Shown: piece by piece, positions 20,920 to 64,000 of the stretch
Layout of the letters: each line of letters starts with the position of its first letter
How positions within the stretch are numbered: position 1 is the first letter of the stretch
NCBI GenBank assembly: GCA_019614645.1
Contig: JABWDB010000013.1
Span: 7,579,501-7,643,500, forward strand
Direction of reading: 5' to 3'
Length of the DNA: 64,000 nt
DNA from: Stratiolaelaps scimitus
Taxonomy: Eukaryota > Arthropoda > Arachnida > Mesostigmata > Laelapidae
Made by a program: the position numbers and the translations under genes
The notes under the pieces: generated by a model
What the model was told of the DNA's origin: nothing
Database searches by the model: none
The model's input: the letters and a program-made list of their open reading frames with translations, nothing else

Positions 20920-20959
<40 letters not shown>

Positions 20960-22369: not shown

Positions 22370-22500
22370 CTGCGGACGAAAGTTATGACGATTGAATTCC
22401 GCTCATTTAATTGCATCAACGGCCACCATTCCTTCGACGAAGATTATCTAGACATGATTACGCTATATGACCGTCCTAACTAATATTATATGCATAGTAA

Positions 22501-22596: not shown

Positions 22597-24849
22597 ATGC
22601 ATAGTAATGTGTTGCCTTAAGGTGTATGCCAAGACAATTCCCCGACGATGACTGCCGAACAATTAAGTGTTCACAATAAATGCTCTAGCAACGCTTACAC
22701 AACAGCCGACTGACATTTAAGTGGGGATCCTTCCCAGGCACCAATCGACGAGTTCCCCTGCTGCTTTGGTAATTTCTAACACATCGACCTGTCCCAGGGG
22801 AAAGGGAAAGTCGCTCGATCGGCGTTCAAGTTGGCGACGCATAGCAGCTCGAAGAACGAAATAAATCAAAGCCTTGTTGGAGCTATTGATCAATTTCGTT
22901 TCCTCCGCGCTTGGCATGGGAAGAAATGCGAAAAACGCCAAAAAAAGACGAAGTCTGCAATAATGGCAATGTCATTAATTGGCTTTCCTAATTTAAATGG
23001 AAGAAATAACTTCAGAGGTGAGCAAACGAGCCTAGAACGAAACGCAATGAACTAGTCGCTGCTTTATCTCGAATATCGATCAGTCCCGTTAAGAGAAAAG
23101 GAGAAATTGAATAGAAGAAACGTAAGTCCTTCTTTCTGGTCTTGATTCTAAACAAAACTGGGGTCATATTTCTAAACGATAAGGCAATACCGTAAAGCTC
23201 TAGGTAGCAGGGACTTGATACAAAGCAGGAGACGTCGACTATGAAATTTAAATGAAACATGGCATGAACGTCTTATAATTTTTCCTCTCGAGACTTCTTT
23301 CGAGTGCCTTACCACAACTTAGAATAATGCTTGGAAAGCTAAATCAACTATCTCAATAATCAACGATTTCAATACAAGCCAACGTTCACTTTACCTAGTT
23401 CACTTGCTGCGAATTTAATGTGTCGCCTCTTCAACGCGCAATGTGCAGTGTTCACTTACTCGCAATCGATGGTTGGAAGGTGGTTCTCCTCGTTACAGAT
23501 TGCCTTTTGAACTGATACAGCATTAGCCAGTATTAAGGCAAAGACACTCAGTCGTTTGGGCTGAGCTGATTGCTGACCCTCCCATCCAAGTGCAGGAGAG
23601 AGTGCCACTGGAATAATTGAGTGGCTCCTATCAATAGACCTGTAATCTTCGTCAACGCGACAAACAAGGCCGCTCCACTTGAATGTTACATTATCGAGTT
23701 TATGCTTCGCAACTACATCCGCGGCTTGCGAGGTAAGGTTGGTCACGAAGGAGGGCGAATATATGAAGCTGACGGACTTCGTTGAGAGGTCAGTCGACCC
23801 TTGGAGACGAGCCATTGACTTGGACCACGTGTCCTTGACAGCGATATTACTGAATAGTAGGGCATTCGAAAGTGAACAGAGCGTTGCCAGGTAACACGTC
23901 CAAATCTGCGCCATATGTAGCCCAAGTTTGCTGCTAATGTTCGGGCATTCGTCCAACGTAGAGCAGTGACCGTAGAAGGCCAATACGGCTACTCGTATAT
24001 ACTCATATTCGTAAATAGGCTTATAAATACCTTGATTAATTTCGGGCATGACCACCTTTAAGTCATCCCTGATACCTGTGTTATTTGGAAACAACGAGTG
24101 TATTATCTTTTTTGCCTGATCAACTTTGAGTATCGCTTCTAAGTAGGAGGTCGATAACTTAAGGTCTTCTTCAATTATAATACTAGGTTTTCCGTGCGCA
24201 ACATCGCGTAAGCGAGCATCTGCGGATAGAGCAGCTTGGATAGACTTGGAAACTCCTTTACATTCCTTTGTATCATTTTTTTCCGCTTCTCAAGATGTCG
24301 AATAATGAACGGGTAGCCTATTTCACTTTGGTCCAGCAGGGTAGCATCAGTTTCGCCATGGCGCCATCACAGTTCGCTGAAATCAAAATCAATGACTGGT
24401 ATTGGCTTTGGGAAAAACCTTCCTTCCTGGGACAATATTAATAGGAGATCTCGCATTAGCGAATCAGACCATATAAAGCTTCGACCATATTAATGGATTG
24501 TCCGATACTTTCATTGGTCCAACCGTGCCGACAAGGTTCTATTGATGAAAGCATCCGAAAAGAATTCACTTCTACCCAAAGATAGCAACAACAAACTGCT
24601 TAAGTCATATTTATTGCCTAACACTGACTCTAAATGTTCTACCGTCACTTATATATTGCAACCTTTCATTCAAGCGATAAGACTGTTACTGTAATACTAT
24701 GCTAAAATCGAGAAAAAAATGGCAGCAATCAAGAACTGGCGTTCACTGCACAACGAGCAATGAGTCTTTAGCAGGGCTCCATTTTAGCTCTAGTAAAGAA
24801 TAAGCGGGAAATAAAATATTAATATTATATTGCAGAAAAATATTGCTCC

Positions 24850-25210: not shown

Positions 25211-26459
25211 CAGCTGAGAGTCAGCTAACCTCATGTGTTGTGCTCGTGGTTGGCCTTGTACACGTATCACCGCCCTTAGTGAAAGAATACGCTAAGCGAT
25301 ACCAGGAAGGGCGGTGCTGTTGAACATCGTCCACGGTTCCACAAGGGGCGGCGGGCATGGTGTTGACATGCATTGGCAGGCCAACACCCCCCTTTTCCTC
25401 AATTTTTCGTCTTCTCATTGGCTTCAAGGGATTGTTTCTAGGCATGCATATTGCTTTGCAAATCTTCACTCAACCTCTGGAGGTAGCCGACTGGAAGCTA
25501 TATGTATCTTCCAGTCGGCTACGTCTATTATATATATATATATATATATATAATACGGGAAGATTGCCAGGGACACCCAACTGGTTCCACGGGAATGCTG
25601 ACGAAAACGTCATAATCAGAATCACCCTCCAAGGAGCGACCTGGGCAAGGCCTAAGCAGCTGTATATCTTTAAATCCAAAAAAAAAGTTCGCACTCGCAA
25701 ATTTTGACAACTAAAGAATGCCGAAATAAGTCCCGAGATGCCGCCAGGTGGCCACGGGGAATATCAACGCACTCTACCTCAATAGGATATGTGCATAATG
25801 AGTTGCAATTTAGCACTTGTGAAAAAGCTCAAAGGGGCTCGCAATTCTTCGGTAGGATACGTAGAGTATCGCATCAACGATTGACCCAGACTATGCAACC
25901 CGTGATAGACAATCTAGGACATTACTTAACGTTGTACTCGAAGTTCATCCAAGAAACTGCACAGAACGAATAGGAGTTCAGTTATTGGTAAGTGGAGAGC
26001 AAGTAAGTGAAGCTTGAACCGGCACAATACAGTATGACTATTTGAAGAAAAAAGCTGTCATTGGTAGCCGACACGGAGAAAGCTTTCCGCAGCACTCCTT
26101 CACTGGTGCGTACATGAATTCTGCGCACTAAACAATTCTGGTGACTGAAACCGGTATTCAAATTTACTATGTCAAATATCCAAGCAGAGGCGGCTTACAC
26201 GTGCAAATTTAATTCTTGTGTAGATTGCTTTGGAGCTACTGCTTACCTTGTCTTAGGACACAGTATCCCTTAAAGAACAAAGGTTTTCCTTTTTGGCCCT
26301 TGGGCGCAAAGCATTTCTTTGAGCAGAAGACGCTTCCTTTCTTTACGTAGCCCGCAAGGCATGGATAAAAAGTCATCAAACCTGTGCAATGTTGATTTTT
26401 TGTGCACTCCTCCTCTTCATGTGGTTCCAGATGAACGAATCCTTCCGATTTGACACCAC

Positions 26460-33131: not shown

Positions 33132-33162
<31 letters not shown>

Positions 33163-33486
33163 GACAATCAGTCATTGTCATCTGATTACACAGCCGGCAC
33201 CGGAGCACGTGAATGTTGGGATAATCTATTCGCTCTGTAAATAGCTCATGAAAACGTTACGTGTGAAAGAACGGATCCGCTAACTTGTACAACTTTCATG
33301 TTAACATATAACTTACCATTAGAGCAAACGTTCTTAGAAACAAGACTAACAAAAAGTAGCTGGAAATATTGTTATAGCGGACCAATGGCGGAAGATGGAC
33401 ATAGTTGTGTGCGACTTTTCGTACCTGATCTTATGCACTGTCTGGGCCGCGGGCTCTTCAGCCTTTTGCTCCTTGTACGCGGACAT
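32814..33486 (-). CDS. RPS20: 40S ribosomal protein S20 (uS10)
   Basis: Two exons, 33486-33425 and 33108-32814, join in phase 2 (357 nt, 118 aa; human is 119 aa). Exon 1 reads [20 protein letters not shown] and ends at GTACG; exon 2 begins at TTGCAG and contains [45 protein letters not shown] and [13 protein letters not shown], ending VEVTIAE. Cytosolic small-subunit protein. The intron carries a (CA)n tract at about 33,133-33,162. It is divergent from ALYREF copy B, with 518 bp between the start codons, so the two could share a bidirectional promoter. This gene is missing from unit A. Confidence 0.97.
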
Positions 33487-39714: not shown

Positions 39715-40344
39715 ATGGCCAAAATAAGTATCAGCCTTCAGGTTGTGCTTCTTGCTGGGCTCATCTTGGCCAGCCATGGATCTCACGATGTTGATAGCGA
39801 CGTGTGTCAGGCTCTCGACAGTTTCCGACAGGGCATACTGCACGTGAACGACGTTCAGGTGGATCAGGCTGTCGCGTACATTCGGCCAAACTTCTTACAG
39901 GCGATCCAATGCAACGAAGTCTTGACCGCATTCGATGCGTCATCACTCCTTGCTCTGCTATCGGTGCGGCCACCGCGCGAACCGGCGGCGGTTCCCAGCG
40001 TCGTCGACGTCCAAGTGATACGAAGTGTGCAGCAGTGGCTACTACTGCATCCCCACGAGGAAGCGACCACCCAATTAGCCCTTCTCGACGCCATAAGTTT
40101 CGTCAACATCGATCCGGCTACACCCCGCGAGGCCGGAGCCGCTCCATCGAAATGGCTCCCTATGGAACGGCTGGCGGAGATCGTCGGCGAAGGGCAGCAA
40201 CAGCTCACATTGTCTACGAGCATGATTCTTATAGCGATGCTGGTGGTTGGATCGGCACTGCTACTGAAATTCATTTCTTTTAGCTGTGTCCAACCGCTAG
40301 CTTCGACTGCCCATCGAGCTTCGATTTCGTATTGTCGTTCGTAA
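39715..40344 (+). CDS. Putative signal-peptide / single-span membrane protein, 209 aa
   Basis: Not recognised. An uninterrupted frame starting MAKISISLQVVLLAGLILA, a good signal peptide with likely cleavage near ASHG/S at residue 23. The mature part has two early cysteines (about residues 30 and 65), acidic and leucine-rich helical-looking segments, then a hydrophobic stretch at about 170-192 (STSMILIAMLVVGSALLLKF) that could be a transmembrane anchor, and a short basic/Ser-rich end. An AG after a T-rich run at 40,283 leaves open that the last codons belong to an intron. It lies between ALYREF-B and sequence shared with unit A and has no copy in A. Base composition is more GC-rich than the surroundings, which supports coding. 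Confidence 0.55.
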   Translation: MAKISISLQVVLLAGLILASHGSHDVDSDVCQALDSFRQGILHVNDVQVDQAVAYIRPNFLQAIQCNEVLTAFDASSLLALLSVRPPREPAAVPSVVDVQVIRSVQQWLLLHPHEEATTQLALLDAISFVNIDPATPREAGAAPSKWLPMERLAEIVGEGQQQLTLSTSMILIAMLVVGSALLLKFISFSCVQPLASTAHRASISYCRS

Positions 40345-43143: not shown

Positions 43144-44093
43144 TTTATAATTTAGTCTTATTGTTCAATGTTGTATTGTAAGTTTATCTCTTACCAGATA
43201 CATATGTGGAAGGCTACACTTGACACTTAAGCATAGAAAGCATACCTAGCATATATTTTATGAATTATAAAACATATGCATATGTTTTTTAATTTATTAG
43301 TATGGTTTCTATAGCGATGTGTAAAGTGTAGCCTTTCACACATGTATGCATGTCGGACATTTCATCTTTTTAATTCCGAAATGCCCTTCATTTATTCAAA
43401 TACCTTTGACAACATAGGGATATCGGATAGATGTATTTTTTTCTATGAAGACTTGAGTGGTTCCTGTGTCAAAATCGGCGCCTAGTTCGAACTCTTCTCG
43501 GTAGACAATAGGTTATGTCCATTCCGATGATATTGTTCATACCGAATTTCCTGGTTCAACAGGGTCATTTTTATCGATTCTTCTTATTCGTTGCGATGGG
43601 CATTTGGTGCCTGCCTTGCGCGTGTAGAACATCATTCTGGCTCTGAAATTACCCCATTATAATTATCATTAATTGCTTGATCTAGAGCATGTGAAGAATC
43701 CATATGTGAGCAATCTGTGCGCAACAGAGTCGCAAGTGATACTGTAACTTTGTGCGAACACAACACACAATGAATGCAAGGCGGAAATGTCTGTTGGCTG
43801 AATACAAAAAGCAGCTCGACTGGACACGAACTCACAGCAGAAAGACCTGATTGGATGACACCCTAAAAGCTGAATTTCTACACGGGTACGATTATCAAAT
43901 GTCTTTGCAGAAGGTATTATAAGACATGTGTCTCTCTCGAGCACGCGGGAGAGATACAATCTTTGAGAACGCAAATTGTACGCCATTATCGAATAATGAC
44001 GTATTCGACGTTTGAAGTTTTTTCACATTTCAAATATCTGATAAAGTCAGGTCCAACGAAATCCGTCACTCCACATGGCTGCGGACGGAAGTT

Positions 44094-44366
44094 TTTCTCT
44101 TTTTTTTTTTCGAGCTGACCCTCAGCTGTTCCCCTATCTGACAGGCCTCAGCTCTTAACCTTTTAGGTATTACTATGAGGACCTGTCGGGGCCACCTTTG
44201 CTTATTCTCTGCCTTACTCGTACCTGACAAGAATCCTCAGATAAAGAAAGATGATAAAGAACTCCAAAGATTCTCCAAAGCGTCTGACAGGATTTGAACC
44301 CAACACACACGTGTCCCTCCGGTCTAGTAGTCGAAGACGCTCACCACTAGACAACCAACCAGGGGA
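44094..44366 (-). mobile_element. Full-length tRNA-derived SINE, unit B
   Basis: The same insertion as 22,097-22,369, with the same target-site duplication (44,079-44,093 and 44,367-44,381). The tRNA-like head reads TAGTGGTGAGCG here, so the A-box differs slightly. It predates the A/B duplication. Confidence 0.9.
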
Positions 44367-44593: not shown

Positions 44594-46880
44594 ATGCATA
44601 GTAATGTGTTGCCTTAAGGTGTATGCCAAGACAATTCCCCGACGATGACTGCCGAACAATTAAGTGTTCACAATAAATGCTCTAGCAACGCTTACACAAC
44701 AGCCGACTGACATTTAAGTGGGGATCCTTCCCAGGCACCAATCGACGAGTTCCCCTGCTGCTTTGGTAATTTCTAACACATCGACCTGTCCCAGGGGAAA
44801 GGGAAAGTCGCTCGATCGGCGTTCAAGTTGGCGACGCATAGCAGCTCGAAGAACGAAATAAATCAAAGCCTTGTTGGAGCTATTGATCAATTTCGTTTCC
44901 TCTGCGCTTGGCATGGGAAGAAATGCGAAAAACGCCAAAAAAAGACGGAGTCTGCAATAATGGCAATGTCATTAATTGGCTTCCCTAATTTAAATGAAAG
45001 AAATAACTTCAGAGGTGAGCAAACGAGCCTAGAACGAAACACAATGAAGTAGCCGCTGCTGTATCTCGAATATCGATCAGTCCCGTTAAGAGAAAAGGAG
45101 AAATTGAATAGAAGAAACGTAAGTCCTTCCTTCTGGTCTTGATTCTAAACAAAACTGGGGTCATACTTCTAAACGATAAGGCAATACCGTAAAGCTCTAG
45201 GTAGCAGGGACTTGATACAAAGCAGGAGACGTCGACTATGTAATTTAAATGAAACATGGCATGAAAGTCTTATAATTTGTCCTCTCGAGACTTCTTTCGA
45301 GTGCCTTACCACACCTTAGAATAATGCTTGGAAAGCTAAATCAGGTATCCAAATAATCAACGATTTCAGCACAAGCTAACGTTCACTTTACCTAGCTCAC
45401 TTGCTACGAATTTAATGTGTTGCCTCTTCAACGCGCAATGTGCAGTGTTCACTTACTCGCAATCGATGGTTGGAAGGTGGTTCTCCTCGTTACAGATTGC
45501 CTTTTGAACTGATACAGCATTAGCCAGTATTAAGGCAAAGACACTCAGTCGTTTGGGCTGAGCTGATTGCTGACCCTCCCATCCAAGTGCAGGAGAGAGT
45601 GCCACTGGAATAATTGAGTGGCTCCTATCAATAGACCTGTAGTCTTCGTCAACGCGACAAACAAGGCCGCTCCACTTGAATGTTACATTATCGAGTTTAT
45701 GCTTCGCAACTACATCCGCGGCTTGCGAGGTAAGGTTGGTCACGAAGGAGGGCGAATATATGAAGCTGACGGACTTCGTTGAGAGGTCAGTCGACCCTTG
45801 GAGACGAGCCATTGACTTGGACCACGTGTCCTTGACAGCGATATTACTGAATAGTAGGGCATTCGAAAGTGAACAGAGCGTTGCCAGGTAACACGTCCAA
45901 ATCTGCGCCATATGTAGCCCAAGTTTGCTGCTAATGTTCGGGCATTCGTCCAACGTAGAGCAGTGACCGTAGAAGGCCAATACGGCTACTCGTATATACT
46001 CATATTCGTAAATAGGCTTATAAATACCTTGATTAATTTCGGGCATGACCACCTTTAAGTCATCCCTGATACCTGTGTTATTTGGAAACAACGAGTGTAT
46101 TATCTTTTTTGCCTGATCAACTTTGAGTATCGCTTCTAAGTAGGAGGTCGATAACTTAAGGTCTTCTTCAATTATAATACTAGGTTTTCCCTGCGCAACA
46201 TCGCGTAAGCGAGCACCTGCGGATAGAGCAGCTGGATAGACTTGGAAACTCCTTTACGTTCCTCTGTATCATTTTTTTCCGCTGCTCAAGATGTCGAATA
46301 ATGAACGGGTAGCCTATTTCACTTTGGTCCAGAATTAACATCAGCTTCGCCATGGCGCCATCACACTTCGCTGAAATCAAAATCAATGACTATATGTCTG
46401 GCTGTATGTATTGGCTTTGGGAAAAACCTTCCTTCCTGGGACAATATTAATAGGAGATCTCGCATTAGCGAATCAGACCATATAAAGCTTCGACCATATT
46501 AATGGATTGTCCGATACTTTCATTGGTCCTTGGCTGGCTTTCATTGGTCCGAACTGTGCCGACAAGGTTCTATTGATGAAAGCATCCGAAAAGAATTCAT
46601 TTCTAGCCAAAGATAGCAACAACAAACTCCTTAGGTCATATTTGTTGCGTAGAACTGACTCGTAAAGGTTCTACCGTCACTTACATAACCCAACCTTTCA
46701 TCCACGCAATAATACTGTTACTGTAATACTATGCTAAAATCGAGAAAAAAAATGGCAGCAATTAAGAAATGGCGTTCACTGCACAACGAGCAATGAGTCT
46801 TTAGCAGGGCTACATTTTAGCTCTAGTAAAGAATAAGCGGGAAATAAAATATTAATATTATATTGCAGAAAAACATTGCT

Positions 46881-46965
46881 CCGCCCGCGTGCATGGCGTT
46901 GTGAGTAAGGGAGGCAGTATTAAAGGGAGTTTTGTGGAGTCGGAGGTTCAAACCTGAGTGGAGCC
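46881..46965 (+). repeat. tRNA-like SINE head, second family, unit B
   Basis: Counterpart of 24,850-24,932: GTGAGTAAGGGAGGCAG then GGAGGTTCAAACCTGAGTGG. Confidence 0.5.
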
Positions 46966-47156
46966 ATATTTACTTTTATGGATAGTATCTCCGCAATAAG
47001 ACTTGAACACGTAGTAGTAGTAGCAACTAGTGTGGTCTGCGGCACAGCTGCCACTGCGCAGAAAGCAAGGCACCATACGCCCCCTCTGTGCGTCATGAGT
47101 ACTGCGTGTTTACATACACGGAGCTTTCTACAGACACCCTGGTGACCACTGTATTT

Positions 47157-47219
47157 GTTCCCTTTTCTCTCATCCTAGATTTCCTGTCTAGGAAATTTGG
47201 GATGAGAGAGAAGGGAAGC
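47157..47219. repeat. Inverted repeat, unit B
   Basis: Counterpart of 25,149-25,210; arms remain pairable with a few mismatches (TTTGG for TCTGG, CCTTTTC for CCCTTC). Confidence 0.85.
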
Positions 47220-48831
47220 AGCTGAGAGTCAGCTAACCTCATGTGTTGTGCTCGTGGTTGGCCTTGTACACGTATCACCGCCCTTAGTGAAAGAATACGC
47301 TAAGCGATACCGGGAAGGGCGGTGCTGTTGAACATCGTCCACGGTTCCACAAGGGGCGGCGGGCATGGTGTTGACATGCATTGGCAGGCTAACACCCGCT
47401 TTTCTTCCATTTTTCGTCTTCTCATTGGCTTCAAGGGATTGTTTCGGCATGCATATTCCTTTACAAGATCTTCACTCAACCTCTGGACGGTTGAGTAGCG
47501 CTAGCCGAGCGGCGGAAGATATATATCTTCCAGTCGGCTACGGCTATTATATATATATATATATATATATATGACATATAATACGGGAAGATTGCCAGGG
47601 ACACCCAGCTGGTTCCACGTTAATGCTGACGAAAACGTCACAATCAGAATCACCCTCCAAGCTACGGCCTGGGCAAGGCCTAAACAGCTGTATATCTTTA
47701 AATCTAGGCAGTCCAGGCTGGGCAAATTTTGAGCTCGCAAATTTGGACAACTAAAGGATGCCGAAAGAGGTCCCGAGATGCCGCCAGGTGGCCACGGGGA
47801 ATATCAATGCACTCTGTCGCAATAGGATATGTGGATAACGAGTTGCAATTTAGCACTTGTGAAAAAGCTTAAAGGGGCCCGCAATTCTTCGCTAGGATAC
47901 GTAGAGTATCGCATCAACGATTGACCCAGACTATGCAACCAGTGATAGACAATCTAGGACATTAATTAACGTTGTAGTCGAACTTCATCCAGGAAACTGC
48001 ACCGAACGAATAAGAGTTCAGTTATTGGTAAGTGGAGAGCAAGTAAGTGAAGCTTGAACCGGTACAATACAGGCTGACTATTTGAAGAAAAAAGCTGTCA
48101 TTGGTAGCCGACACGGAGAAAGCTTTCCACAGCACTCCTTCACTGGTGCGTACATGAATTCTGCGCACTAAACAATTCTGGTGACTGAAACCGGTATTCA
48201 AATTTACTATGTCAAATATCCAAGCAGAGGCAGCTTGTACGTGCAAATTTAATTTATTTTTTGTGTAGATTGCTTTGGAGTTACTGCTTACCTTGTCTTA
48301 GGATACAGTATCCCTTAAAGAATAAAGGTTCTCCTTTTTGGCCCTTGGGTACAAAGCATTTCCTTGAGCAGGAGACGCTTCCTTTCTCTACGTAGCCCGC
48401 AAGGCATGGATAAAAGGTCATCAAACCTGTGCAATGTTGATTTTTTGTGCACTCCTCCTCTTCATGTGGTTCCAGATGAACGAATCCTTCCGATTTGACA
48501 CCACCTGTTAAATTGGGGTAACGTTAGGTTTAACTAGACAATATTACTATTTAGTTTTAAATATTATTTATTCCAAAAGTAAAAGACAAGATTACAACCA
48601 AAAATTCTAGAGAACTCTGCACGCGTCCGACTGGCAGAACCAGCTTCGGCAAGCCATAAGAAGGACGAGACGGCCCAAGTCTAGAAAGAGATGTTCTTAA
48701 AGCGCTAGGTAGCCACAATTGTAATCTCCAACTGCCACACTGCTGGATGTTTTCTATGAATCACGAACTCGGTAGTAATAAAGGTCTGCATGATGTTGAC
48801 AAATCTGTCATTCACGGTGGGATTTACAAAC

Positions 48832-49750
48832 TTTTTGGTGCTTTCTGTTGCCATGCCAATTATTCATGAGATCCTTCTACAACTCGAGATCTCGATCCGA
48901 GTCGAATTTTTTCTTTTGGGCCCAAAATCTCTAGCATTTGCTATGGATTTCAACGTAATTTACTTCTAAAAGAAGTAAATTCCGTTGAAATCCATAGCAA
49001 ATGGTACCATTACTTTAGGCTCAAATCTATTTGGTACTGCTACGGCCATTGCCTGTTCACCTGGTCGTGGCCACTTTTTCACTTTATCTTTTTCTGGTAC
49101 CCTATACAGGCTGATCTAGGTCTCGTCCACTGCAACGATATGCTCTAAGCTATTCTTTTGCTGCCTATATATATTCAAATTGTCTTGCGAACATTCTTCG
49201 CGCATTTTCAGTTGGCCAGGACCGAGTACATGAAAGACCCATTTTGCCTTTTTTTCTGCATCGTCAGATTATTTTTAATAATTCGACGGCATGTTTCAGA
49301 AGGTACGCAAATTTCAGCCGGCAAAGTCATCAATGACTAAGCTCTAGTTTGCTCAAAAACATTTTCGATTACCTCGATCCCTTCGTCGAATCGAGATTCG
49401 GGAAGGGGTGGGCGGCCTCGATGTTCATAATATCCCAGTTACTTTGCCTAAACTGCGCACACCAACGGCACACCAGACTCAGGACATTATGGCCGTGCGC
49501 ACTAACCAACCTTCGACGTATTTCAGCTGGACATTAAATCTGACACTTTTCTTCTGAGAATGCAAGTCTGAGGGACCTGGTCCGCCAATAACCATTTAAA
49601 CGCCCAATGAGAGCCAAATGCTAGCGGCTTTGGCTCGCGGTGCCTGCTTGCTAATTGTCGTGTTTCACTAACCGCCAAATTTGAACTCAAACCGGCGAAT
49701 AATAAGAATACGGGGCAAGACGATAGGAGTGCCATTTTTTCGGGTCAGCC
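48832..49750 (-). mobile_element. Degenerate mariner-like transposon 1
   Basis: On the minus strand it starts GGCTGACCC at 49,750 with TATCGTCTTGC shortly after, the same terminus as the element at 58,819. It encodes fragments including VDET-stop-ISLYRVPEKDK (the tryptophan of the usual ETW is a TAG), KKWPRPGEQAMAVAVPNRF and HPFPNLDSTKG, typical of mariner-family DDE transposases, with several stops. A TA follows its outer end (49,751). The other end lies where unit B homology stops. Confidence 0.75.
48935..49003. repeat. 33-bp foldback inside mariner 1
   Basis: Arms 48,935-48,967 and 48,971-49,003 pair with a single mismatch and a 3-nt centre. The second mariner copy has only one arm at this place, so the other arm is a templated inverted duplication. 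Confidence 0.9.
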
Positions 49751-50762
49751 TAATACCTTTCACGACTTCAGAGAAACAGTCTTCAGGAGGATTAAATTGA
49801 TGAAGATGATGAACATGAAAGACCCCGAAATAAGACCTACAAAGCTAAATAATTTGTTCTCTTGGAGAGTCGCACGTCTCATACGAGACTCACGAAGTGG
49901 ACATTTGCCATTACCACAAATGTAAAAATTTCAGACAGCGCCCTCTGTCGGCGAAATGACTATGCCCATCACAACGCACGATCAATAAATCAGTCTGCTC
50001 GTAACTATGCTGTCGCACACATCTATGCAGAAAAGAATGCCGGTATTGTACTGTTGAGCGACTTGGTGACTCGGTAAGCTCGCTCCTAGCACACCACGAG
50101 GTAGCTTAACTATCGCGCCTAATATTAACCTTTACGAAAAGATCCCAAGGAGCGATGGATAAAGCTTTAACCGGAAGCAGATGATGCTGAACTGTTTCAG
50201 ACGGATTAAGGATCCTAATTTGCATGAACTCAGGATTTGATAATGTACAAGAAAAGATGAAACAATGGGGCCGAAACGTAACAGTTTGGACAATTTGGAG
50301 ATAGACATTTTACACTATTTAGAGATTTGGTGTTGAAGAAGAGCAAGGAGATGCAATGCCTAATTCTTGGTCATATTAGCCGTGGACTAACTGTAAATGG
50401 ACCTCGTCCTCTGCCAGCCTCTATTTACGAGTTGGAAAAAAATTACATAATTTCAATTCAATCACAACTCAAGGTGTCTATAAAATCAGGATCTAGTTTA
50501 ATCGATCGGCGAAGTCTTGCTTGCCGCGTAACTCTATGAGCACTGTGGCAGTCCTCGCAGTAGTACTCGTTTCTATAGTTCCAGTACGCTTCCACTTTGC
50601 ATCTAATATCATACATGAGCAAGATATGATAAAGATAAGAAAAAGCATAGATGCTGTTAAGAGCAGGGACATGTTGGACATATCCATATATGCATCTTTT
50701 GTATTTATGTACACACTCAGATCCAGAATTAAGAAATTGTAGATAAATGACAGTTTTCTTAC
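49751..50762. other. Non-coding or intronic
   Basis: No recognised exon. The minus-strand frame at 50,740-50,493 includes a hydrophobic stretch but no family match; one version of it begins at an AG (50,615 region) in phase with the Kazal-like exon and could be an alternative 3' end. Confidence 0.4.
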
Positions 50763-50888
50763 GTTGACAAGAGAAGTTCGTGAACGTGGTCGGCTTTGAA
50801 TCGTCACAGAAGGGTGGACTCGATATTGTATCAGCACATACGTAGTTTACGATATCCGCACAGGTGACGGGGCATTCTGCGGGTTGCT
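50763..50888 (-). CDS. Kazal-like exon (exon 3 of the mosaic gene)
   Basis: A 126-bp exon between ATATAG and GTAAGA. It encodes CPVTCADIVNYVC, then a spacer with one extra Cys (PPFCDD) and TTFTNFSCQ. The C-x3-C, Y-x-C and TF-x-N-x-C spacing resembles Kazal serine-protease-inhibitor domains, minus the last cysteine, which could come from the next exon. Phase in is 1, phase out is 1, matching exons 2 and 4. Inhibitory function is not implied. Confidence 0.55.
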
Positions 50889-51419
50889 CTATATAAAAAA
50901 GTCTTTTGTTAAAACAGAATCGCTTGTGGTGGCTAAGTACCCGTTCCCGCTCATCGATTTAGCCACGCTATCTATGCAGTTGGTCTAGCTCTGACCCCGT
51001 ATTTAATATATCATATTTCTAAGATAAACTTGGAAAAGAAGAGACCCAGATACTCTTTTGATGAGAGTAAGTCACGAGCTTAACCCAGACATAATTTGTA
51101 GAATAATCGGTTAGTCTTATGGCTCAAAATCATTGCCACTACAAATGGTTGCAGTTATATCTGTATCATTCAATGCTGTGTGGGGTATCTCGGTAGAGCC
51201 CTCACCCAGTGCTCAATGAAGGTCGCGGCAAACGAGCTCACTGGTTAGACCTGCATTGCAGGTCTAGTGAGATAGTGGAAAGATTTAAAACACCGATTCT
51301 GATTATATAGATTCGTGCAGTCTCGTGATACAAATCTATATCAGACTTATCTCTATCGAACCCCTATATTGGGTCAAAGTATAAAAATAATATATTAAAT
51401 ATTACATTCAAAAATTGAT

Positions 51420-51500
51420 AATTGTATGTGTGTGTCTAATGCTTATAGTGTAATATATACATATACTAACTATAAGCATTAGGCACACACACATACAATT
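51420..51500. repeat. Long hairpin (about 29-bp arms)
   Basis: Left arm 51,420-51,448 (AATTGTATGTGTGTGTCTAA...) pairs with 51,470-51,500 with one mismatch and a 2-nt CA expansion; a 21-nt AT-rich loop lies between. It could be a MITE-like relic or produce a foldback RNA. Confidence 0.9.
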
Positions 51501-51638
51501 AGCAATCTTTTGGATATATATATATATATATTACATCACGTGAAGCCGAGGGAAGCCGGCTAAGGGTATCAGTATGAGGGTGTCACTCCACAACGTGGAC
51601 CCTTTTCTGAGCCTTAGGCTCAACTCAGAGTTAGGCTC

Positions 51639-53300
51639 ATGCTGGGACTAGATGCTAATGCAGAGATCAGGAGAGACGAGAAGGCATGGCTGGGAAAGAA
51701 TAAAGTATGGAAACGTAGAGTCACGCTTCCCAATGTGCTGGGTAAGAGACTCATAGTCATGCCGTCCACGAAACTTGGGACAATGGATTGTAAACCGGAG
51801 GAGTGGGTAGTGATACCTACCTGCTACAACGTCCAGATGCTGGGTCATGTCACCAGGGAATGTACGACCGAAAGGGTAGAGGGACGACGCTGCCGCAGGT
51901 GCGGAGACATTGGCCACTTCATCAAATATTATACAATGAAACAGGCCAGGTGTTACTCGTGCAACGAAAAAGATCGTACTACTGTCCTAACGGAGTACCC
52001 AAAGTTCAAAGAATTGATAGAGCGGAGAAGGAAGACGGCAACTACTTCCCCGACAGAGCAAGCAAAGCAGCCAAAGTTAGAAGCTCGGAAGTCAAAAAGA
52101 GAGACCCCGGTGCAACCAAAATACTGGTGGAATGAAAAAATCAAGAAGAGCACGAAGGAATACATGAAAGCTCGGAGAAAACTTAAGCTTGCGAGAACGC
52201 ATGGTTGGGACGCAAACGATCTCCTACTTTCCTCAAGGCGCTGCACGGCGGAAGTCAAGCGAGCGATCGCTACCAGTAAAAATTAATGCGGGAAGGAATT
52301 TCTAACAGAGCTAGACGATTACCCGTAGGGGCGCCCGTACAGACTAATGAGGGGGATAATGGGAAAAGCTCCGGAAGTAGATATATTGAAACAGGAAAGA
52401 CTGGACATACTGAATAAGCTCTTTCCCCGCCACCGAGATTTCGAAAGGGAAGAATTTCGAGGCTCGGGAAGAGACATGGGGAAGACTTCCCAGCAGTCAC
52501 GACAGAAAAGGTACTCAAAGCGGATAAGGACACAAGCAGATAAGGCCTGATGGTCCTGATGGAATTCCACCAGCCGCAGTCAAGGTGCTTTTCAGGGAGT
52601 TCCCCGAGATTGTGACTGGTGTCGCCACAAAAATGCTACACAGTGCAAAGTTTCCAACAGCTCGGAAGACTGCGGAGGTGGTTCTCATCCCAAAAGTCAG
52701 CAGGGGTTACATGCTCATATGCCTCATTAACACGCTTGCCAGGGGGTTCGAGATGGTAGTGGAAGAAAGGCTGAGGGTCTTTGCTGAACCACACGGCCTG
52801 CTTCTGGCAAGCCAGTATGCCTTCCACAAGCACAGGTCCGTTCATACGTCAATATACAAATTGGTCGTAAAAGCAGAACTTTTACATAATTCCAAGCGAC
52901 AGACCAGACGCCTGATGGTAGCGATCTTCCATGATGTTAAAAATGCTTTTAACAGCCTAACGTGGAAAGTCATCCTGAGTACAGTCGGAAACGGGCGCGG
53001 TACTATCTGGTAAGAATTATATCAGGGTATCTGAAGGACAGGGCTATCACAATTTCGGGAGTAAGCATGAGCATGACGGAAAGGCGTTCCACAAGCTCCA
53101 TTGTGGGACCCTTGCCGTGGAACATTGCCTACGATGATGTTCTTAGCCTGCAGGGATTACACGGCAGAGTTGAAACCCTTGCATACGCTGACGATCTGGC
53201 GATGATAGTGGATGTTAAAAAGGGCGCAGAACTAGAGATAAAAGTCAACAGGGTGCTTCATTTGATACAGGAATAGATGGTCGGCGCTGGTTTCGAACTA
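51639..53300 (+). mobile_element. Degenerate R1-like non-LTR retrotransposon, endonuclease deleted
   Basis: The first frame (51,639-52,286) has decayed CCHC knuckles (GHVTREC, CRRCGDIGHF, CYSCNEK) of an ORF1 protein and then jumps directly to YWWNEKIKKSTKEYMKARR, the segment that in R1 elements lies between endonuclease and reverse transcriptase. The apurinic-type endonuclease is therefore missing. RT fragments follow: LIPKVSRGY, GLLLASQYAFHKHRSVHTSI, FHDVKNAFNSLTW and, after a frame change, VGPLPWNIAYDDVL and YADDLAMIV (YADD at 53,184-53,195). Stops and frameshifts throughout. It lies in intron 2 of the mosaic gene. Confidence 0.85.
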
Positions 53301-54089
53301 ACTCTATAACAGAGTGAGGCGGCTGTAATGATTAAGTCCCTGTTGATCACTGTGACTGGGATAAGTCCCAGTTGACCACTGTGTGGGGGTTATTCTGGTT
53401 ATCAAGTCAGGGACCTGATACCGGACATCAAATAGTGGCTAAGTCGCCCTGGGGATCAGATGGACTTCTTTGTGACCGAGGTGGTAACCGGGCACTGGAG
53501 ACTTCCAAGCATATCTCAGTGACTCCAATGTGACACCTCAATCGGGACAATGTATTCAATGTCAGCAGCAAGAGAGGGACGATGCTCTGCACACCCTACG
53601 TATGCCCTGGCGGTCCAGAAGGTCGTCTCTCTTTGGAAAAGAAACGGGGATCTGAGAGCCACAAAACCATACATCATGCCGAAAACAAACATGGGACTTT
53701 GTCGAATTCATGTGTAGCTCAAATAGTAGGTGGGAAATAGGTGTAGCGACAGCCAAAGAGGACTGGGAAGGACGTATCAGACTACAAGGACTCCTGGCGT
53801 TGGGAAATGGGCGGCAAGCTCCTGTAAGAAACAGTTTGCCTGGCGAAGAAGGAAGACTAACGGATGACCCCGGCCGTTTGACACAGCAAGCATCCACCGC
53901 TTCTACCTACCCGTAGGACTATTCAACGAACACCCGGGAGATATGGGCTGATGTTTTAGCGAGATGTGTGGTTTTCCAGAACATCGGAAACCTGGATTTT
54001 AGTCGGAAACACCACGTGTCGACCTCACCGTATGGGTGGTGAGTCCGACACTGTTCGGCCCACACGAAGTGCCTCCAACCGCTATTTGC

Positions 54090-54720
54090 CTTGTCGCAAA
54101 TTGCATCTGAGGCTGGCGTAGATGGGAATGTCCGAATCGTGTAAAGATGTCCAGATGTCTTCAGGCATCAGAGAATCGTGTTCATAGAAAACTCAAATGA
54201 AAACCTACATTGAAACATAGATCGAAGATTGAGCTTCGCTCGTGAGCAAATTTCGTTGACAGAGGAGTGGCAACGTGTGCTCTTCTCCGATGAAAAGAGA
54301 TTCAATCTTGACGGTTCTGACAGACAATATTATTTCCACGACATTAGGGAAAAGTAGAAAGCAAGCGAGAGGTGGTGTCGAAATGATATGGGCCGGTATT
54401 GGCTACAACGCAAAGACCGATTTGGTCTTCATAGACGGGCGAATGAATTGTTGTGCCTACGTTTATATGTTGGAGGATCAACTTAGAAATCACGCCGATA
54501 AGATCTGTACTGGAAGATTCATCTCGCAGAAGGATAACGCTGCAGGTCGTACGGCGAGGATCGTCAAGGAATTCTTCGGAACTCAAGACGTCCAGTTAGT
54601 GAGCTAGACGCATGCTCCCCAGACGTAAGACGCTACTGTGGAAGGCCTTATCTACAATTGTTGTAGAGGTTACGGCACATGAGCTAAAAAAACGTTAGTA
54701 GCCGAATGGAATGTTCAAAC
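54090..54720 (+). mobile_element. Degenerate Tc3-like transposase
   Basis: Frames contain EEWQRVLFSDEKRFNLDGSD (first catalytic Asp), GGVEMIWAGIGYNAKTDLVF, DGRMNCCAYVYMLEDQL and FISQKDNAAGRTARIVKEFF (second Asp in a mutated QQDNA). A frameshift separates the two parts and the third acidic residue is lost. Ends not identified. It sits in intron 2 of the mosaic gene. Confidence 0.8.
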
Positions 54721-55099
54721 CTGTTGTTCAAAATGTTGTTGATCAAACCTCATACGTAAATTTTATGAATCTATGCCCAAGCGATTAATTTCTGTTCTGA
54801 GGAAGGGCGGCGGCCCGACGAAATACTAAACGTGTAGAAAATTCGTAGGAGAACGACGTTAGAACTCAGTTGTGTTCGACAAACACTAACTGGGCTATCA
54901 TTTTGTCGCACCCTCGAAACGACAATTTCCGATATCAAATGCTTGTATCCGAGTTAGACGGGCAAATATTCAGCGAATGTTGTTTAAATGCGATGACTTT
55001 GAAATTTCTGAAAGCGAAACTGCAGTGCTACTTACGGTTGAGAAAAGATTTCAGAAACATAGGGGTGGGCTACTTTTGACGCAGTGGGTGGTAGATATC

Positions 55100-55165
55100 A
55101 CACATAATATATATAATATCTATATATATAATTGTAGACTATATATCATATGATATATACTCTAC
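55100..55165. repeat. AT-rich palindromic tract
   Basis: ATAT-rich sequence with ATATCATATGATATA, able to fold on itself. Just downstream of exon 2 of the mosaic gene. Confidence 0.7.
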
Positions 55166-55230
55166 AAATGATTCACCTTTAGTGAGATATGCTTTGCTGT
55201 AAATGCTTCGATATGAATGCTTTCACTTAC

Positions 55231-55485
55231 TACATTTATTGTTGTAGATAGACGAGACGAACGAGTACACATCCTTAAAACAACGGTTTGTGTAACAGAC
55301 TCCGTCAGGACAAACGCCTCGAGGATCATCGCGGCATTCACTCAGACATTTCTCCTGGTAAAGGTTTTTGCCCACGTGGCATTTGCAAGTAGGTTTAAAC
55401 CACTGCCTGGCGCAGCTCGCATTAATTCCAGTGCAGTGTTGTGCCTCGTCTGTGCTGCATTCTGCGAACAGTCCTAATAGGAGAA
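55231..55485 (-). CDS. Cys-rich exon (exon 2 of the mosaic gene)
   Basis: Between TTCTCTTAG and GTAAGT. Translation VLLLGLFAECSTDEAQHC continues through CKCHVGKNLYQEKCLSEC and VCPDGVCYTNRCF: 11 cysteines in about 85 residues, with an EGF-like C-x-C-x(8)-Y...C pattern. The hydrophobic start joins in phase to the end of exon 1, extending its membrane span; alternatively it is the tail of a signal peptide from a different first exon. Confidence 0.6.
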
Positions 55486-55842
55486 CTAAGAGAAGAAATT
55501 AACTCAGATTGGACAGCGGGCAGGTATGAAATCGGTTGCGAAAGCTAAACCGTTCAGTCGGTCTGTCTGTGGACTACGCTGTCATTACATCCGGTGGGCG
55601 GCAACAGATACACTTGCCGAAGTTGTGAACGGAATGCGACCTGCATCAAATGGGGAATATCAACAATCTGTGCTTGTCAAGAGTGCCACGTCTTCTTAGC
55701 TTTGAATCTTGGGGTTGTCGAGGACTATTTATTCATCCAAAAAGCACAACAATAGCAGATTGTCTCTTGGCGATTTTCAATTGCATCCTAATGTATCCAG
55801 CCTACAAAACAGACTGGTAGATAGATGGATATATATTGGTCA

Positions 55843-55880
55843 ATTGAATGCATAAAGATATATATCTTTATGCATTCAAT
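55843..55880. repeat. Perfect 38-bp palindrome
   Basis: ATTGAATGCATAAAGATA followed directly by its exact reverse complement with a TA centre. In intron 1 of the mosaic gene. Confidence 0.97.
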
Positions 55881-55959
55881 ATAAATACATGTAAGCACTA
55901 CGCTAGGCAAAATCCGGCACACTACGCCGGATTGGAGCCTGATCAATACCATAGGATAG

Positions 55960-56650
55960 TACTACAGTGGTGTGCATAAACCTAACGCACCCCTACATTT
56001 CAACAAATCGTTACAAAAAATACACATTTGAGGCATTTATTCTGTATCTGATTAATGGACGTGTCAAATAACATACACACCACAAAGAACAGCGCATATG
56101 ACGTCGCATGCAGCCTGCTACAATAAAATGTGTCATTTCGGTTGTGCAAAATGATAACGCTTCCCTCAGTTATCGAGTGTTTTCGTTGAATTAATCCAGT
56201 TTGTGTTGAGCATTCAAGCTGTACTGCACATGCTTCGAGCCTTAGTGATACAGACAAAGCAGTTATTACTGCTTTACACCGAGCAGGAAAAACCCAGGCT
56301 GCAGTTGCCAGAAAAATTGACAGAAGTCGTCGCGTAGTGCCAAATTATTTACGCAGTCCGTCGACGTATGGTACTATAATATTAAGTCGAAAGAACGTCA
56401 CGAACGATCAGCCAGCGAACTTGGCAGACAACCACTCGCTTTCATCTCATCTCAAATGAATAGCGAGGACTATCAGCAGATGTTGACCAACAACCTACTA
56501 CCGTTTAGGAGCAGATTTCATCGACCACCAATTGTTTTCCAACAAGATAACGCTTCAATTCACGTCAGCGCACGTGCGTGGTTAAGACGGCATTGTCATT
56601 GAAACCCTAAAGTGGCCAGTATGTTCTGGAATGGACGTGCACAGTTGTGC
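55960..56650 (+). mobile_element. Degenerate Tc3-like transposon, internally deleted
   Basis: Starts near TACAGTGGTGTGCATAAAC. Plus-strand pieces read LSDTDKAVITALHRAGKTQ and AAVARKIDRSRRVV (N-terminal helix-turn-helix), then, after a deletion, YQQMLTNNLLPFRSRF and IVFQQDNASIHVSARAWL (DDE region around the second Asp). The middle of the transposase is missing. It lies in intron 1 of the mosaic gene. Confidence 0.8.
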
Positions 56651-56672
56651 ATGTCCATTTAGGTGCACTTAC

Positions 56673-57033
56673 CCACAATGATCATGATTACCAATATAAG
56701 GCAGCAAACTGCTCCCAGACTGCCAGCAATTATTCTCTGCCGGCGAGGCTTTTCGTCGAGGTCGTGGCTCTGGAACTGATCCGGTTTTTGGTATAAGGAT
56801 TTATCACCAGCAGGGATGTCGGCGAACGGCAAAAGCGATTTATCTTCGGGCGACGTTGGGTCGAGAAGAGTTTCCTGTGGCGAACTCCTAGAAGACTCCT
56901 TTGTATCATCTGATTTGTCTGATTCTGGAGATCCGTGCGCAATGTCGCCTCCACTGGTTCTATTTTCTTGACTCGAAGTGGTCACGGCTTTATCTCGTTC
57001 GGTCTTGGCCCTTGGGCTGGCTTCGGTATCCAT
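56673..57033 (-). CDS. N-terminal transmembrane exon (exon 1 of the mosaic gene)
   Basis: ATG at 57,033; 120 codons plus one base, ending at GTAAGT. The first roughly 95 residues are hydrophilic, Ser/Asp/Glu-rich (MDTEASPRAKTERDK start), then DEKPRRQR and a hydrophobic span IAGSLGAVCCLILVIMIIV. Basic residues before the span and no signal peptide imply a cytosolic N-terminus, type II. This arrangement is common in neprilysin-type (M13) and similar ectoenzymes, but no enzyme motif is visible downstream. Confidence 0.6.
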
Positions 57034-57297
57034 TTTTGTAGAATTTTCGTGAAGGAACCCACTGTGGTCACGTGTCTTGTGTCATGTTCGCTATGTAAAC
57101 TCCGTAGCCCTAAGTAGGCTAAGACGATTTGGCACGACGGACCCAGTCGTAAACTTCAGTGCTCCCAATCAACACGAGCTTCGTTCAATCCTTTGTAATT
57201 AGCAGCGTCGTTATCCTTGGCGAACGACAGGTCGCCCAAGAGACCGTGAACGGGTGGTTCGTTAACATTGCAGGAGTTGCGGGGACCCTGTCGCGAC

Positions 57298-58001
57298 GAA
57301 TGACCACCACGGATTGTCGTGCGAGCGCAGCGCCGGTTGCCAGCCGCGTCACATGATGCTTAATAACACGCTCGTGAGAGCCCTCCGTTCCGCCGGTATC
57401 CCTTGCACAAGGGATCCGCAGGGCCTCGACTATACTGACGGGTGCCGCCCTGACCGCCTCACTCTTATCCCATTCCACCGCGGTCAGCACCTCGTTTGGG
57501 ACGGCACGGTGGTTGACAGCGCCTTCCTATGTCAACCACTGTGCAGCCACCCACGGTTACGCAGTAGCCCGTGCACGTCGGGCCAAGCTACGGAAGTAAG
57601 CGAATGCATGACCGGCCGCACGAATTCCCAAGCGGCGCACGTCCAATACAATGATAAGTCTCATTAGATCGCAATACGGTAACTGCTCTATAAATTACAA
57701 CACTTTGATTGATAAAAGTCATTTGCAAGCAGTCTTATGCCCGGGACGTATGAAGATTAAGTACCTATAGGAGGACATTCATTACTCTAGAACCCACCTC
57801 TTTTCCCCCCTGCCTTTGAAACCTTAGGCGGGCACGGCCCCCTCACTGCGAGCTTCCTCGAAAGGGTCTACCATAGGCGGATCCGCGGCACCGGGGACAA
57901 GCGCGCACGATTTTTCCTTCTGCAACGTCTCTCCCTCGCTGTGCAGAGAGACAATGCCATTGCCTTCCTCGAGACAACGACGGCCTCGGTCCCCAACTAA
58001 T
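57298..58001 (+). mobile_element. Second fragment of the RPD-type retroelement, interrupted
   Basis: Homologous to 27,940-28,480: [29 protein letters not shown], then a break at about 57,597 and resumption at about 57,790 (CACCTCTTTTCCCCCC, GGCGGGCACGGCCCC). The roughly 190 bp between them have no match. RPDG is RPDR here and there are frameshifts, so it is dead. Weak similarity may extend upstream to about 57,206. Confidence 0.8.
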
Positions 58002-61894: not shown

Positions 61895-64000
61895 CTCTCT
61901 CGCGCGCGAAAGATGTGATCTGTGAGGACACATTGTACGCCATTGTCGAATAATGACGTTCTCGACGTTTAAAGAGTTTTCACATTTCAAATGCTTAATA
62001 TAGTGAGGCCCCGGTTACCCCATATGGTTGCGGAAGTTACAACGATTGAATCCAGGTCTTTTAATTAATTCAGTGGCCAATATTCAGTGGACGAAGTTTA
62101 TCTAACTACGATTTAATTAATGAAATATTAGATGAAAAGTAATGTGTTGTAAATTGACTTTTATAATATAGTGAATGAAATTCATGTGTTGCCTTAAGGC
62201 GTATGCCAAGTCAATTCCCCGACGATGACTGCCGAACAATTAAGTGTGCACAATAAATGCTCTAGTAACGGTTACAACACCCGACTGACATTTAAGTGGG
62301 AATCCTCCCCAGGCACCAATGGACGAGTTCCCGTGCTGCTTCAGTAATCTCTGACATATTGGCTGGTTCTGCGGGAAAGGGGAAGTCGCTCGATCGGCGT
62401 TCAAGTTGGCGACGCATAGCCGCTCGAAAAATGAAATAAATCAAAGCCTTGTCGGAGTTGTCGATCCATTTCGTTTCCTCTGCGCTTGGCATGGGAAGAA
62501 ATGCGAAAAACGCCAAAAAAAGACGGAGTCTGCAATAATGGCAATGTCATTAATTGGCTTCATTAATTTAAATGGAAGAAATAACTTCAGAGGTGAGTAA
62601 ACGAGCCTAGAACGAAACAATGAACTAGCCGCTGCTTTATCTCGAATATCGATCAGTCCCGTTAAGAGAAAAGGAGAAATTGAGTAGAAGAAACGTAAGT
62701 CCTTCCTTCTGGTCTTGATTCTAAACAAAACTGGGGTCATATTTCTAAACGATAAGGCAATACCGTAAAGCTCTAGATAGCAGGGACTTGATACAAAGCA
62801 GGAGACGTCGACTATGTAATTTAAATGAAACATGGCATGAATGTCTTATCATTTGCCCTCTCGAGACTTCTTTCGAGTGCCTTACCACACTTTAGAATAA
62901 TGCAACTAATAAATCAACTATCTCAATAATCAACAATTTCAATACAGCTAACGTTCACTTTACCTAGTTCACTTGCTACGAATTTAATGTGTTGCCTCTT
63001 CAACGCGCAATGTGCAGTGTTCACTCACTCGCAATCGATAGTTGGAAGGTGGTTCTCCTCGTTACAGATTGCCTTTTGAACTGATACAGCATTAGCCAGT
63101 ATTAAGGCAAAAACACTCAGTCGTTTGGGCTGAGCTGATTGCTGACCCTCCCATCCAAGTGCAGGAGAGAGTGCCACTGGAATAATTGAGTGGCTCCTAT
63201 CAATAGACCTGTAGTCTTCGTCAACGCGACAAACAAGGCCGCTCCACTTGAATGTTACATTATCGAGTTTATGCTTCGCAACCACATCCGCGGCTTGCGA
63301 GGTAAGGTTGGTCACGAAGGAGGGCGAATATATGAAGCTGACGGACTTCGTTGAGAGGTCAGTCGACCCTTGGAGACGAGCCATTGACCTGGACCACGTG
63401 TCCTTGACAGCGATATTACTGAATAGTAGGGCCTTCGAAAGTGAACAGAGCGTTGCCACGTAAAACGTCCAAATCTGCGCCATATCTAGCCCAATTTTGC
63501 TGTTAATGTTCGGGCATTCGTCCAACGTAGAGCAGTGACCGTAGAAGGCCAATACGGCTACTCGTATATACTCATATTCGTAAATAGGCTTATAAATACC
63601 TTGATTAATTTCGGACATGACCACCTTTAAGTCATCCCTGATACCTGTGTTATTTGGAAACAACGAGTGTATTATCTTTTTTGCCTGATCAACTTTGAGT
63701 ATCGCTTCTAAGCTAGAGGTCGATATGTTAAGGTCTCCTAGTACTAGGTTGTCCCTGCGCAACATCGCGTAAGCGAGCATCAGCGGATAGAGCAGCTTGG
63801 ATAGACTTGGGAACTCCTTTACATTCCTTTGTATCAATTTTATCCGCTGCTCAAGATGTCGAATAATGAACGGGTAGCCTATTTCACTTTGGTCCAGACT
63901 TTGCATCAGCTTCGCCATGGCGCCATCACAGTTCGCTGAAATCAAAATCAATGACTGGTATTGGCTTTGGGAAAAACCTTTCTTCCTGGGATAATATTAA
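61895..64000 (+). repeat. Third, diverged copy (C) of the 3' part of the duplicated unit
   Basis: From about 61,895 the sequence aligns with 21,950 onward (A) and 43,930 onward (B): CATTGTACGCCATTGTCGAATAATGACG, then the exon 6 and exon 5 regions. It lacks both SINE insertions of A and B. It runs off the window. Confidence 0.93.
62292..63935 (-). CDS. Unrecognised mosaic protein, copy C: exons 5 and 6, intact frame (partial at 5')
   Basis: Exon 5 (63935-63029, 907 nt) starts after TGATTTCAG and ends at GTGAGT; exon 6 (62529-62292) ends CLGRIPT and stop. Joined in phase they give about 381 residues with no stop. Exon 5 begins NCDGAMAKLMQSLDQSEIGY, includes YPLMLAYAMLRRDNLVLGDL exactly where A and B are frameshifted, and has sequons NIS, NNT, NLT and NVT and about seven cysteines, fitting a secreted or extracellular region. 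Exon 6 starts with the hydrophobic LRLFLAFFAFLPMPS. No family recognised; it does not show zinc-protease motifs. Upstream exons lie beyond the window. Its donor is GTGAGT where A and B have GTAAGT. Confidence 0.65.

What the first reader, a model, noticed from the sequence alone, without database searches (positions are those of the whole stretch)
44714..57033. Candidate undescribed mosaic membrane gene: type II anchor + Cys-rich + Kazal-like + glycosylated ectodomain
Six minus-strand exons, several too short to notice as open frames, have canonical splice sites, and all five junctions are phase-compatible (1/2, 1/2, 1/2, 1/2, 2/1 nt). The order TM, 11-Cys module, Kazal-like module, 6-Cys module, about 300-aa region with N-glycosylation sequons, hydrophobic C-terminal exon is one I do not know from any named family. 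Chance agreement of five phases is possible but unlikely together with the matching topology.
Basis: partly seen in the sequence, partly recalled or inferred. Interest (0 to 1): 0.8.

Follow-up and report, generated by a model that had tools for sequence, protein, structure and literature searches.

The report
Orphan membrane gene in tandem array
An animal genome carries what looks like a real six-exon gene for a membrane-anchored, cysteine-rich surface protein that matches no known family in the searches run here; it may be a fast-evolving lineage-specific gene, but no transcript was available to prove it.

Summary
Six minus-strand exons (57033..44714) have canonical splice sites, five phase-compatible junctions and one 642-aa frame. 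All five donors are GTAAG; that strand has only 8 GTAAG in 12.4 kb, and the five used end the longest open runs of the eight.

Topology looks type II: a 100-aa tail, one strong transmembrane segment, exons with 11, 5 and 6 Cys, then about 330 aa with 5 of the ectodomain's 7 N-glycosylation sequons.

Exons 5-6 look constrained. Copies A and B differ at 5 of 998 exon sites against 22 of 505 in the intron between them. Gene conversion is not excluded.

"Kazal-like" fails on Cys number, spacing and Pfam. No homologue was found in a 5.8-billion-protein database holding nr/UniRef animals, in Pfam or in the PDB. My degenerate-neprilysin idea failed its tests.

New here: A and B can start exon 5 at an internal acceptor. 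The segment before it weakly resembles TFIIH subunit p8 (Tfb5) and is frameshifted in A; in copy C it is in frame.

Single-transcript status, species and function remain unproven.

The parts
56673..57033 (-). exon 1 (copy B): start codon, Ser/Thr-rich mildly acidic tail of 100 aa, transmembrane signal anchor
   Evidence: open frame, KD 2.93, donor GTAAGT; tail 21 D/E, 15 K/R, 23 S/T
55231..55461 (-). exon 2 (copy B): 11-Cys module; alternative in-frame starts 55473 and 55485
50763..50888 (-). exon 3 (copy B): 5-Cys module, not a Kazal domain by spacing or Pfam
48292..48504 (-). exon 4 (copy B): 6-Cys module; 9 of 212 sites differ from copy A, all six Cys kept
45457..46216 (-). exon 5 (copy B): glycosylation-prone core, most conserved long stretch of the A/B duplication
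   Evidence: 3 of 760 sites differ from copy A
44714..44951 (-). exon 6 (copy B): C-terminus and TAA stop
   Evidence: 2 of 238 sites differ from A, both synonymous; 26 of a 239-site segment differ from C
46183..46370 (-). TFIIH p8 (Tfb5)-like segment behind an earlier acceptor, intronic in the B model
   Evidence: Pfam PF06331 E 2.4e-4, below the curated cut-off; tblastn E 0.005
26247..26459 (-). copy A exon 4
23460..24219 (-). copy A exon 5 (same internal acceptor as B)
22717..22954 (-). copy A exon 6
63029..63935 (-). copy C exon 5, open from the earlier acceptor and including the p8-like segment; lacks the internal CAG and 8 bp
62292..62529 (-). copy C exon 6

Best explanation
This is a real, lineage-restricted animal gene (copy B) encoding a 642-aa type II single-pass membrane protein, in a small tandem array with a paralogue (copy C) and a partial or allelic copy (A). 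Shown by sequence: exons, splice sites, phases, a topology signal, Cys-rich modules, and low A/B divergence confined to exons 5-6 relative to the intron between them. Inferred: the transmembrane segment acts as an uncleaved signal anchor; the three symmetric (phase 1-1) Cys-rich exons form a disulfide-braced stalk that holds the N-glycosylated exon 5-6 domain outside the cell; exon 5 is the conserved functional core, while exons 4 and 6 are looser, as expected of a surface-exposed binding protein rather than an enzyme (no catalytic motif recognised). Its partner and tissue are unknown.
For: One 642-aa frame over six exons with five matching phases. Five of the strand's 8 GTAAG sites in 12.4 kb are these donors. 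A/B differ at 3 of 760 sites in exon 5 and 2 of 238 in exon 6, against 22 of 505 in intron 5 (p 3.5e-7). In the 695-site core of exon 5 plus exon 6 there are 0 nonsynonymous differences over about 715 sites and 3 synonymous over about 212 (p 0.012), but see against. The stretch 45422-46190, with one difference, is the longest of its kind in the 16 kb aligned duplication and covers exon 5 except its first 26 nt. One transmembrane segment, 7 sequons, 11+5+6 Cys. No homologue at E 1e-3 for copy C exon 5 or for a 650-aa query close to the model, although the same database returned animal neprilysins for a control.
Against: No transcript. e1-e3 have no second copy to test. Copy A keeps exons 5-6 without e1-e3. 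The whole of exon 5 holds two nonsynonymous differences (both in its first 26 nt) and one synonymous one, so the clean 0-against-3 contrast depends on where the core was cut. Gene conversion can also give A/B near-identity: another stretch, 43651-44340, with no Pfam match in its 117-codon frame, is nearly as long (690 bp), and the synonymous rate in the core is itself low (1 of 157, p 0.08). e4 shows no constraint beyond kept Cys (6 nonsynonymous, 3 synonymous). Structure predictions were uninformative (pLDDT 36 and 46).
Confidence: 0.52

Rival explanations
1. Two neighbouring genes are merged: a membrane or secreted Cys-rich gene (e1-e3) and a separate gene (e4-e6 or e5-e6) with its own first exon.
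For: Copy A has e4-e6 only, yet e5-e6 differ from B at 5 of 998 sites. e1-e4 all end in phase 1, so any order of them would be phase-compatible. The stretch before the last e2 acceptor reads LLLVLLLGLFA, which could be part of a signal-peptide exon (read).
Against: I found no alternative first exon, but did not search for one systematically; the last e2 acceptor gives a clean membrane-to-Cys junction; all junctions are compatible.
Confidence: 0.25
2. Copy A is not a paralogue: the tandem duplication is an assembly artefact in which two haplotypes were placed one after the other, and the A/B comparison is allelic.
For: A ClpP-like exon lies in both blocks (10833-11081 and 28986-29234, 98.8% identical). 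Block divergence is 423 of 16141 sites plus indels. Copy A stops inside the gene.
Against: The ribosomal S10p/S20e-type exon (32817-33107) is in block B only, which an allele would be unlikely to lack. A real tandem duplication looks the same otherwise. Copy C, about 5% diverged, shows that the family does duplicate.
Confidence: 0.33
3. Exons 5-6 are an extremely degenerate neprilysin (M13) ectodomain that lost its zinc site.
For: Same predicted type II topology; by eye, motifs in order (NAFY-, PAGIL-, HExxH- and ADNGG-like). My reading only.
Against: No Pfam M13 hit at E 10 (HMMER's filters drop weak matches). Vertebrate neprilysin HMM score -1.8, reached by 106 of the 1122 shuffles that got a score (2000 submitted). 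BLASTP E 2.1. Pairwise z from -0.76 to 1.4. hhalign probability 0.2%, exon 5 only. No HExxH.
Confidence: 0.05
4. Copy C is the functional form and its exon 5 includes a TFIIH p8-like segment; A and B are decayed.
For: C is open for the whole 907-nt exon. Pfam Tfb5 E 0.001 on a C fragment and 2.4e-4 on a B fragment. tblastn of human p8 ranks B first (E 0.005) and C second (0.061) in the window.
Against: Both Pfam scores lie below the 23.5-bit cut-off, and with the longer C protein E is only 0.008-0.009. With phmmer on frames, C ranks third (E 0.68), behind an unrelated frame (0.082); copy A matches only at E 24. C lacks 8 bp and the internal acceptor, and its first codons match the A/B reading in another frame. 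A/B divergence is 9 of 151 sites before the internal acceptor and 3 of 760 after it (p 1e-5).
Confidence: 0.12

Closest known systems
Neprilysin (M13) family type II membrane metallopeptidases
   Same: Short cytosolic tail, single signal anchor, large ectodomain (predicted)
   Different: No HExxH; no profile or pairwise similarity above chance to vertebrate members; three Cys-rich exons in front
Kazal-domain proteins
   Same: Exon 3 has C-x3-C-x7-C
   Different: Only 5 Cys, wrong later spacing, no Pfam hit
TFIIH subunit p8 / GTF2H5 / Tfb5 (PF06331)
   Same: About 40 residues after the earlier exon 5 acceptor align to it
   Different: Below the curated cut-off, partial, frameshifted in copy A, outside the A/B exon
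Arthropod salivary or venom Cys-rich secreted families (recalled)
   Same: Small Cys-rich modules in phase-1 exons

Membership tests
Kazal domain | Six Cys with C-x(n)-C-x7-C-x10-C-x2,3-C-x(n)-C (spacing recalled) | tested here: not met
   Five Cys, spacing 3-7-9-12 (from the positions)
Kazal domain | Pfam Kazal profile hit | tested here: not met
   No family for exon 3 or the whole model
Neprilysin M13 | HExxH zinc motif | tested here: not met
   Absent from the 642-aa model; motif named in passages seen of PMC2259306
Neprilysin M13 | Profile similarity to Pfam M13 families or to neprilysin | tested here: not met
   only vertebrate neprilysins were used in 43, 47, 52 and 64
Neprilysin M13 | Type II membrane topology | tested here: met
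   Predicted: one N-terminal transmembrane segment with a basic cytosolic flank
TFIIH p8 (Tfb5, PF06331), upstream exon 5 segment only | Pfam score at or above 23.5 bits | tested here: inconclusive
   21.5 bits (B) and 19.4 bits (C), E 2.4e-4 and 1e-3
TFIIH p8 (Tfb5, PF06331), upstream exon 5 segment only | Match over the whole family profile, N-terminal part included | tested here: not met
   Match covers profile positions 11-49 of 67; a pattern look for the p8 N-terminus in intron 4 of A and B gave nothing convincing
Type II single-pass membrane protein | Signal anchor used, ectodomain outside | not testable with these tools
   Predicted only

The most novel reading that the evidence does not exclude
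A previously undescribed, lineage-specific family of type II membrane proteins in tandem array. The ectodomain fold of exons 5-6 has no known relative, and one paralogue (C) has drawn a fragment of a transcription-factor subunit gene (TFIIH p8) into its extracellular reading frame by a splice-acceptor switch, while A and B skip it.
Probability: 0.1. Interest if true: 0.6.

Novelty: new variant of a known kind. Interest (0 to 1): 0.38.

Why it matters
If transcribed, it adds an unnamed architecture to type II membrane proteins, and a three-copy natural comparison of how a splice-acceptor switch and local frameshifts remodel an exon. Lineage-specific surface proteins are often how an animal meets its hosts, mates or parasites (general knowledge). 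If it is not one transcript, the case still corrects a merged gene model and flags a possible assembly duplication.

Tried and rejected
Degenerate neprilysin: raised by eye, rejected.

Kazal label: rejected. Kinship of e2 and e4: the score was reached by 40 of 2000 full shuffles but by 137 of 2000 shuffles that keep the Cys positions, so it is not claimed; e2-e3 and e3-e4 were negative. Faster-than-neutral change of exon 4, an early note of mine, is not supported (p 0.11).

Structure prediction from single sequences was unusable, so no fold search was run.

Viral contigs for exon 5 and exon 2, prokaryote contigs for exon 5 and for a neprilysin fragment, Rfam, tRNA and NCBIfam gave no confirmed match. 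The PDB gave chance-level hits only (E 0.52, E 0.28). Papers: search listings only; passages of PMC7396615 and PMC2259306. The titles, abstract starts and passages shown did not name this architecture; that is not a claim that it is unpublished.

The species was not established. I suspected a tick or other arachnid from memory and have no tool result for it.

Confidence in the single gene was lowered from 0.55 to 0.52 and in the allele rival from 0.40 to 0.33.
Full report
WHAT IS THERE. Read with first bases 57033, 55461, 50888, 48504, 46216 and 44951 they give 1929 nt, one frame of 642 aa and a TAA at 44716-44714, with phases 1/2, 1/2, 1/2, 1/2 and 2/1. The donors are all GTAAG. On that strand between 44700 and 57100 there are 8 GTAAG; five are these donors and end open runs of 136, 89, 65, 77 and 265 codons in the required phase, the other three end runs of at most 20. 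As a control, 359 of 1686 positions sampled every 7 bases on the strand also end a run of at least 65 codons in some phase, so the donors alone are good but not overwhelming evidence. Exon 2 has three usable AGs in the same frame and exon 3 two, so their first residues are uncertain (read).

TOPOLOGY. Residues 101-119 score 2.93 on the Kyte-Doolittle scale; the next best separate stretch scores 1.74. KPRRQR precedes the segment. The 521-residue ectodomain has 7 N-x-S/T sequons against a shuffle mean of 2.8 (23 of 2000 shuffles reach 7). Exons 2, 3 and 4 carry 11, 5 and 6 Cys. The 100-residue tail has 21 D/E, 15 K/R and 23 S/T. That fits a type II protein with a disulfide-braced stalk; this function is inference.

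IS IT CODING? Exons 4-6 occur again at 26.5-22.7 kb (copy A) and exons 5-6 at 64.0-62.2 kb (copy C). A and B lie in a tandem duplication of about 17-22 kb; 423 of 16141 aligned sites differ. A and B differ at 3 of 760 sites in exon 5 and 2 of 238 in exon 6, against 22 of 505 in the intron between them (p 3.5e-7). The stretch 45422-46190, with one difference, is the longest of its kind in the duplication and covers exon 5 except its first 26 nt. By codon, the 695-site core of exon 5 plus exon 6 has 0 nonsynonymous differences over about 715 sites and 3 synonymous over about 212 (p 0.012). The full exon 5, however, adds two nonsynonymous differences in its first 26 nt, so this contrast depends on the cut. 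Against constraint: another stretch, 43651-44340, whose 117-codon frame has no Pfam match, is almost as long (690 bp), so patchy gene conversion is possible, and the synonymous rate in the core is itself low (1 of 157, p 0.08). Exon 4 differs at 9 of 212 sites (6 nonsynonymous, 3 synonymous), no faster than the block (p 0.11), with its six Cys kept. Between B and C the exon 5 core differs at 14 of 695 sites, exon 6 at 26 of 239 and intron 5 at 27 of 499: exon 6 is faster than its intron (p 0.009), the core slower (p 0.002).

COPIES ARE NOT EQUIVALENT. A and B share an internal acceptor (CAG) at the start of exon 5. Between the earlier acceptor and this one they differ at 9 of 151 sites, with a 2-nt and a 1-nt indel; after it, at 3 of 760 (p 1e-5). 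Copy C has CTG at that place and lacks 8 bp, but is open from the earlier acceptor at 63935 through to the donor. Its first codons still match the A/B reading, in another frame. That segment resembles TFIIH subunit p8: Pfam PF06331 at 2.4e-4 (B fragment) and 1e-3 (C fragment), both under the curated cut-off, and 0.008-0.009 with the longer C protein. By tblastn human p8 finds B first (E 0.005) and C second (0.061) among all places in the window, while copy A appears only at E 24; by phmmer on frames C is third at E 0.68, behind an unrelated frame. I read it as a probable relic; a pattern look for the N-terminal part of p8 in intron 4 gave nothing convincing.

WHAT IT IS RELATED TO. Nothing found. 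Copy C exon 5 and a 650-aa query close to the model gave no hit at 1e-3 in the 5.8-billion-protein database, which does hold nr and UniRef animal proteins, as the neprilysin control showed. That search needs shared 5-residue words and similar length, so short secreted relatives of exons 2-4 were not tested. The exact 642-aa model has no Pfam family at E 10 and one chance-level PDB hit (E 0.28); earlier piecewise scans gave only the p8 match and weak hits such as E 0.12 for exon 1. Kazal fails by count, spacing and profile. I proposed a degenerate neprilysin by eye; profile, pairwise and profile-profile (exon 5 only) tests do not support it, though only vertebrate neprilysins were available for those.

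WHAT REMAINS OPEN. The own-genome search was unreachable in all 18 tries, so species, orthologues and copy number are unknown. Copy A lacks exons 1-3 yet keeps exons 5-6 nearly identical to B. Either exons 4-6 work without them, or conversion keeps the copies alike, or A is an allele placed in tandem by the assembler. A ClpP-like exon is present in both blocks, but the S10p/S20e-type exon only in block B, which speaks against a plain allele. My confidence that B is one gene as drawn is about 0.52, and lower for any statement on its role.

Noticed in passing
9477-26787 against 26970-48832: Tandem duplication of about 17-22 kb, 423 of 16141 aligned sites differing, with a ClpP-like exon in both blocks but the S10p/S20e-type exon in one only; real duplication or misplaced haplotype.
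   Followed up: partly
46183-46370 and 63800-63935, minus strand: Segment resembling TFIIH p8 (Tfb5, PF06331) directly after a TTTCAG acceptor; weak, below the Pfam cut-off, but top-ranked in the window by tblastn.
   Followed up: yes
51621-53013, plus strand: Likely retroelement inside intron 2: reverse transcriptase PF00078 E 2.1e-6 (just under its cut-off) and a weak CCHC knuckle E 0.013.
   Followed up: no
43651-44340: Stretch almost as conserved between A and B as exon 5; holds a 117-codon minus-strand frame without Pfam match.
   Followed up: partly
27939-28249 and 57293-57598: Dispersed repeat, 84.6% identical over 311 bp, about 260 bp upstream of exon 1 of copy B.
   Followed up: no
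39706-40344, plus strand: 212-aa frame with hydrophobic N- and C-terminal stretches (by eye), no Pfam family.
   Followed up: no
8240-8671, 3970-4353 and 32817-33167, minus strand: Housekeeping-type exons: RPB5, an L10P-insert protein and ribosomal S10p/S20e.
   Followed up: no
50458-50604, minus strand: The exon 3 frame stays open past its donor into another Cys-containing stretch; by eye the nearest acceptor does not fit the phase of the exon 3 donor.
   Followed up: partly
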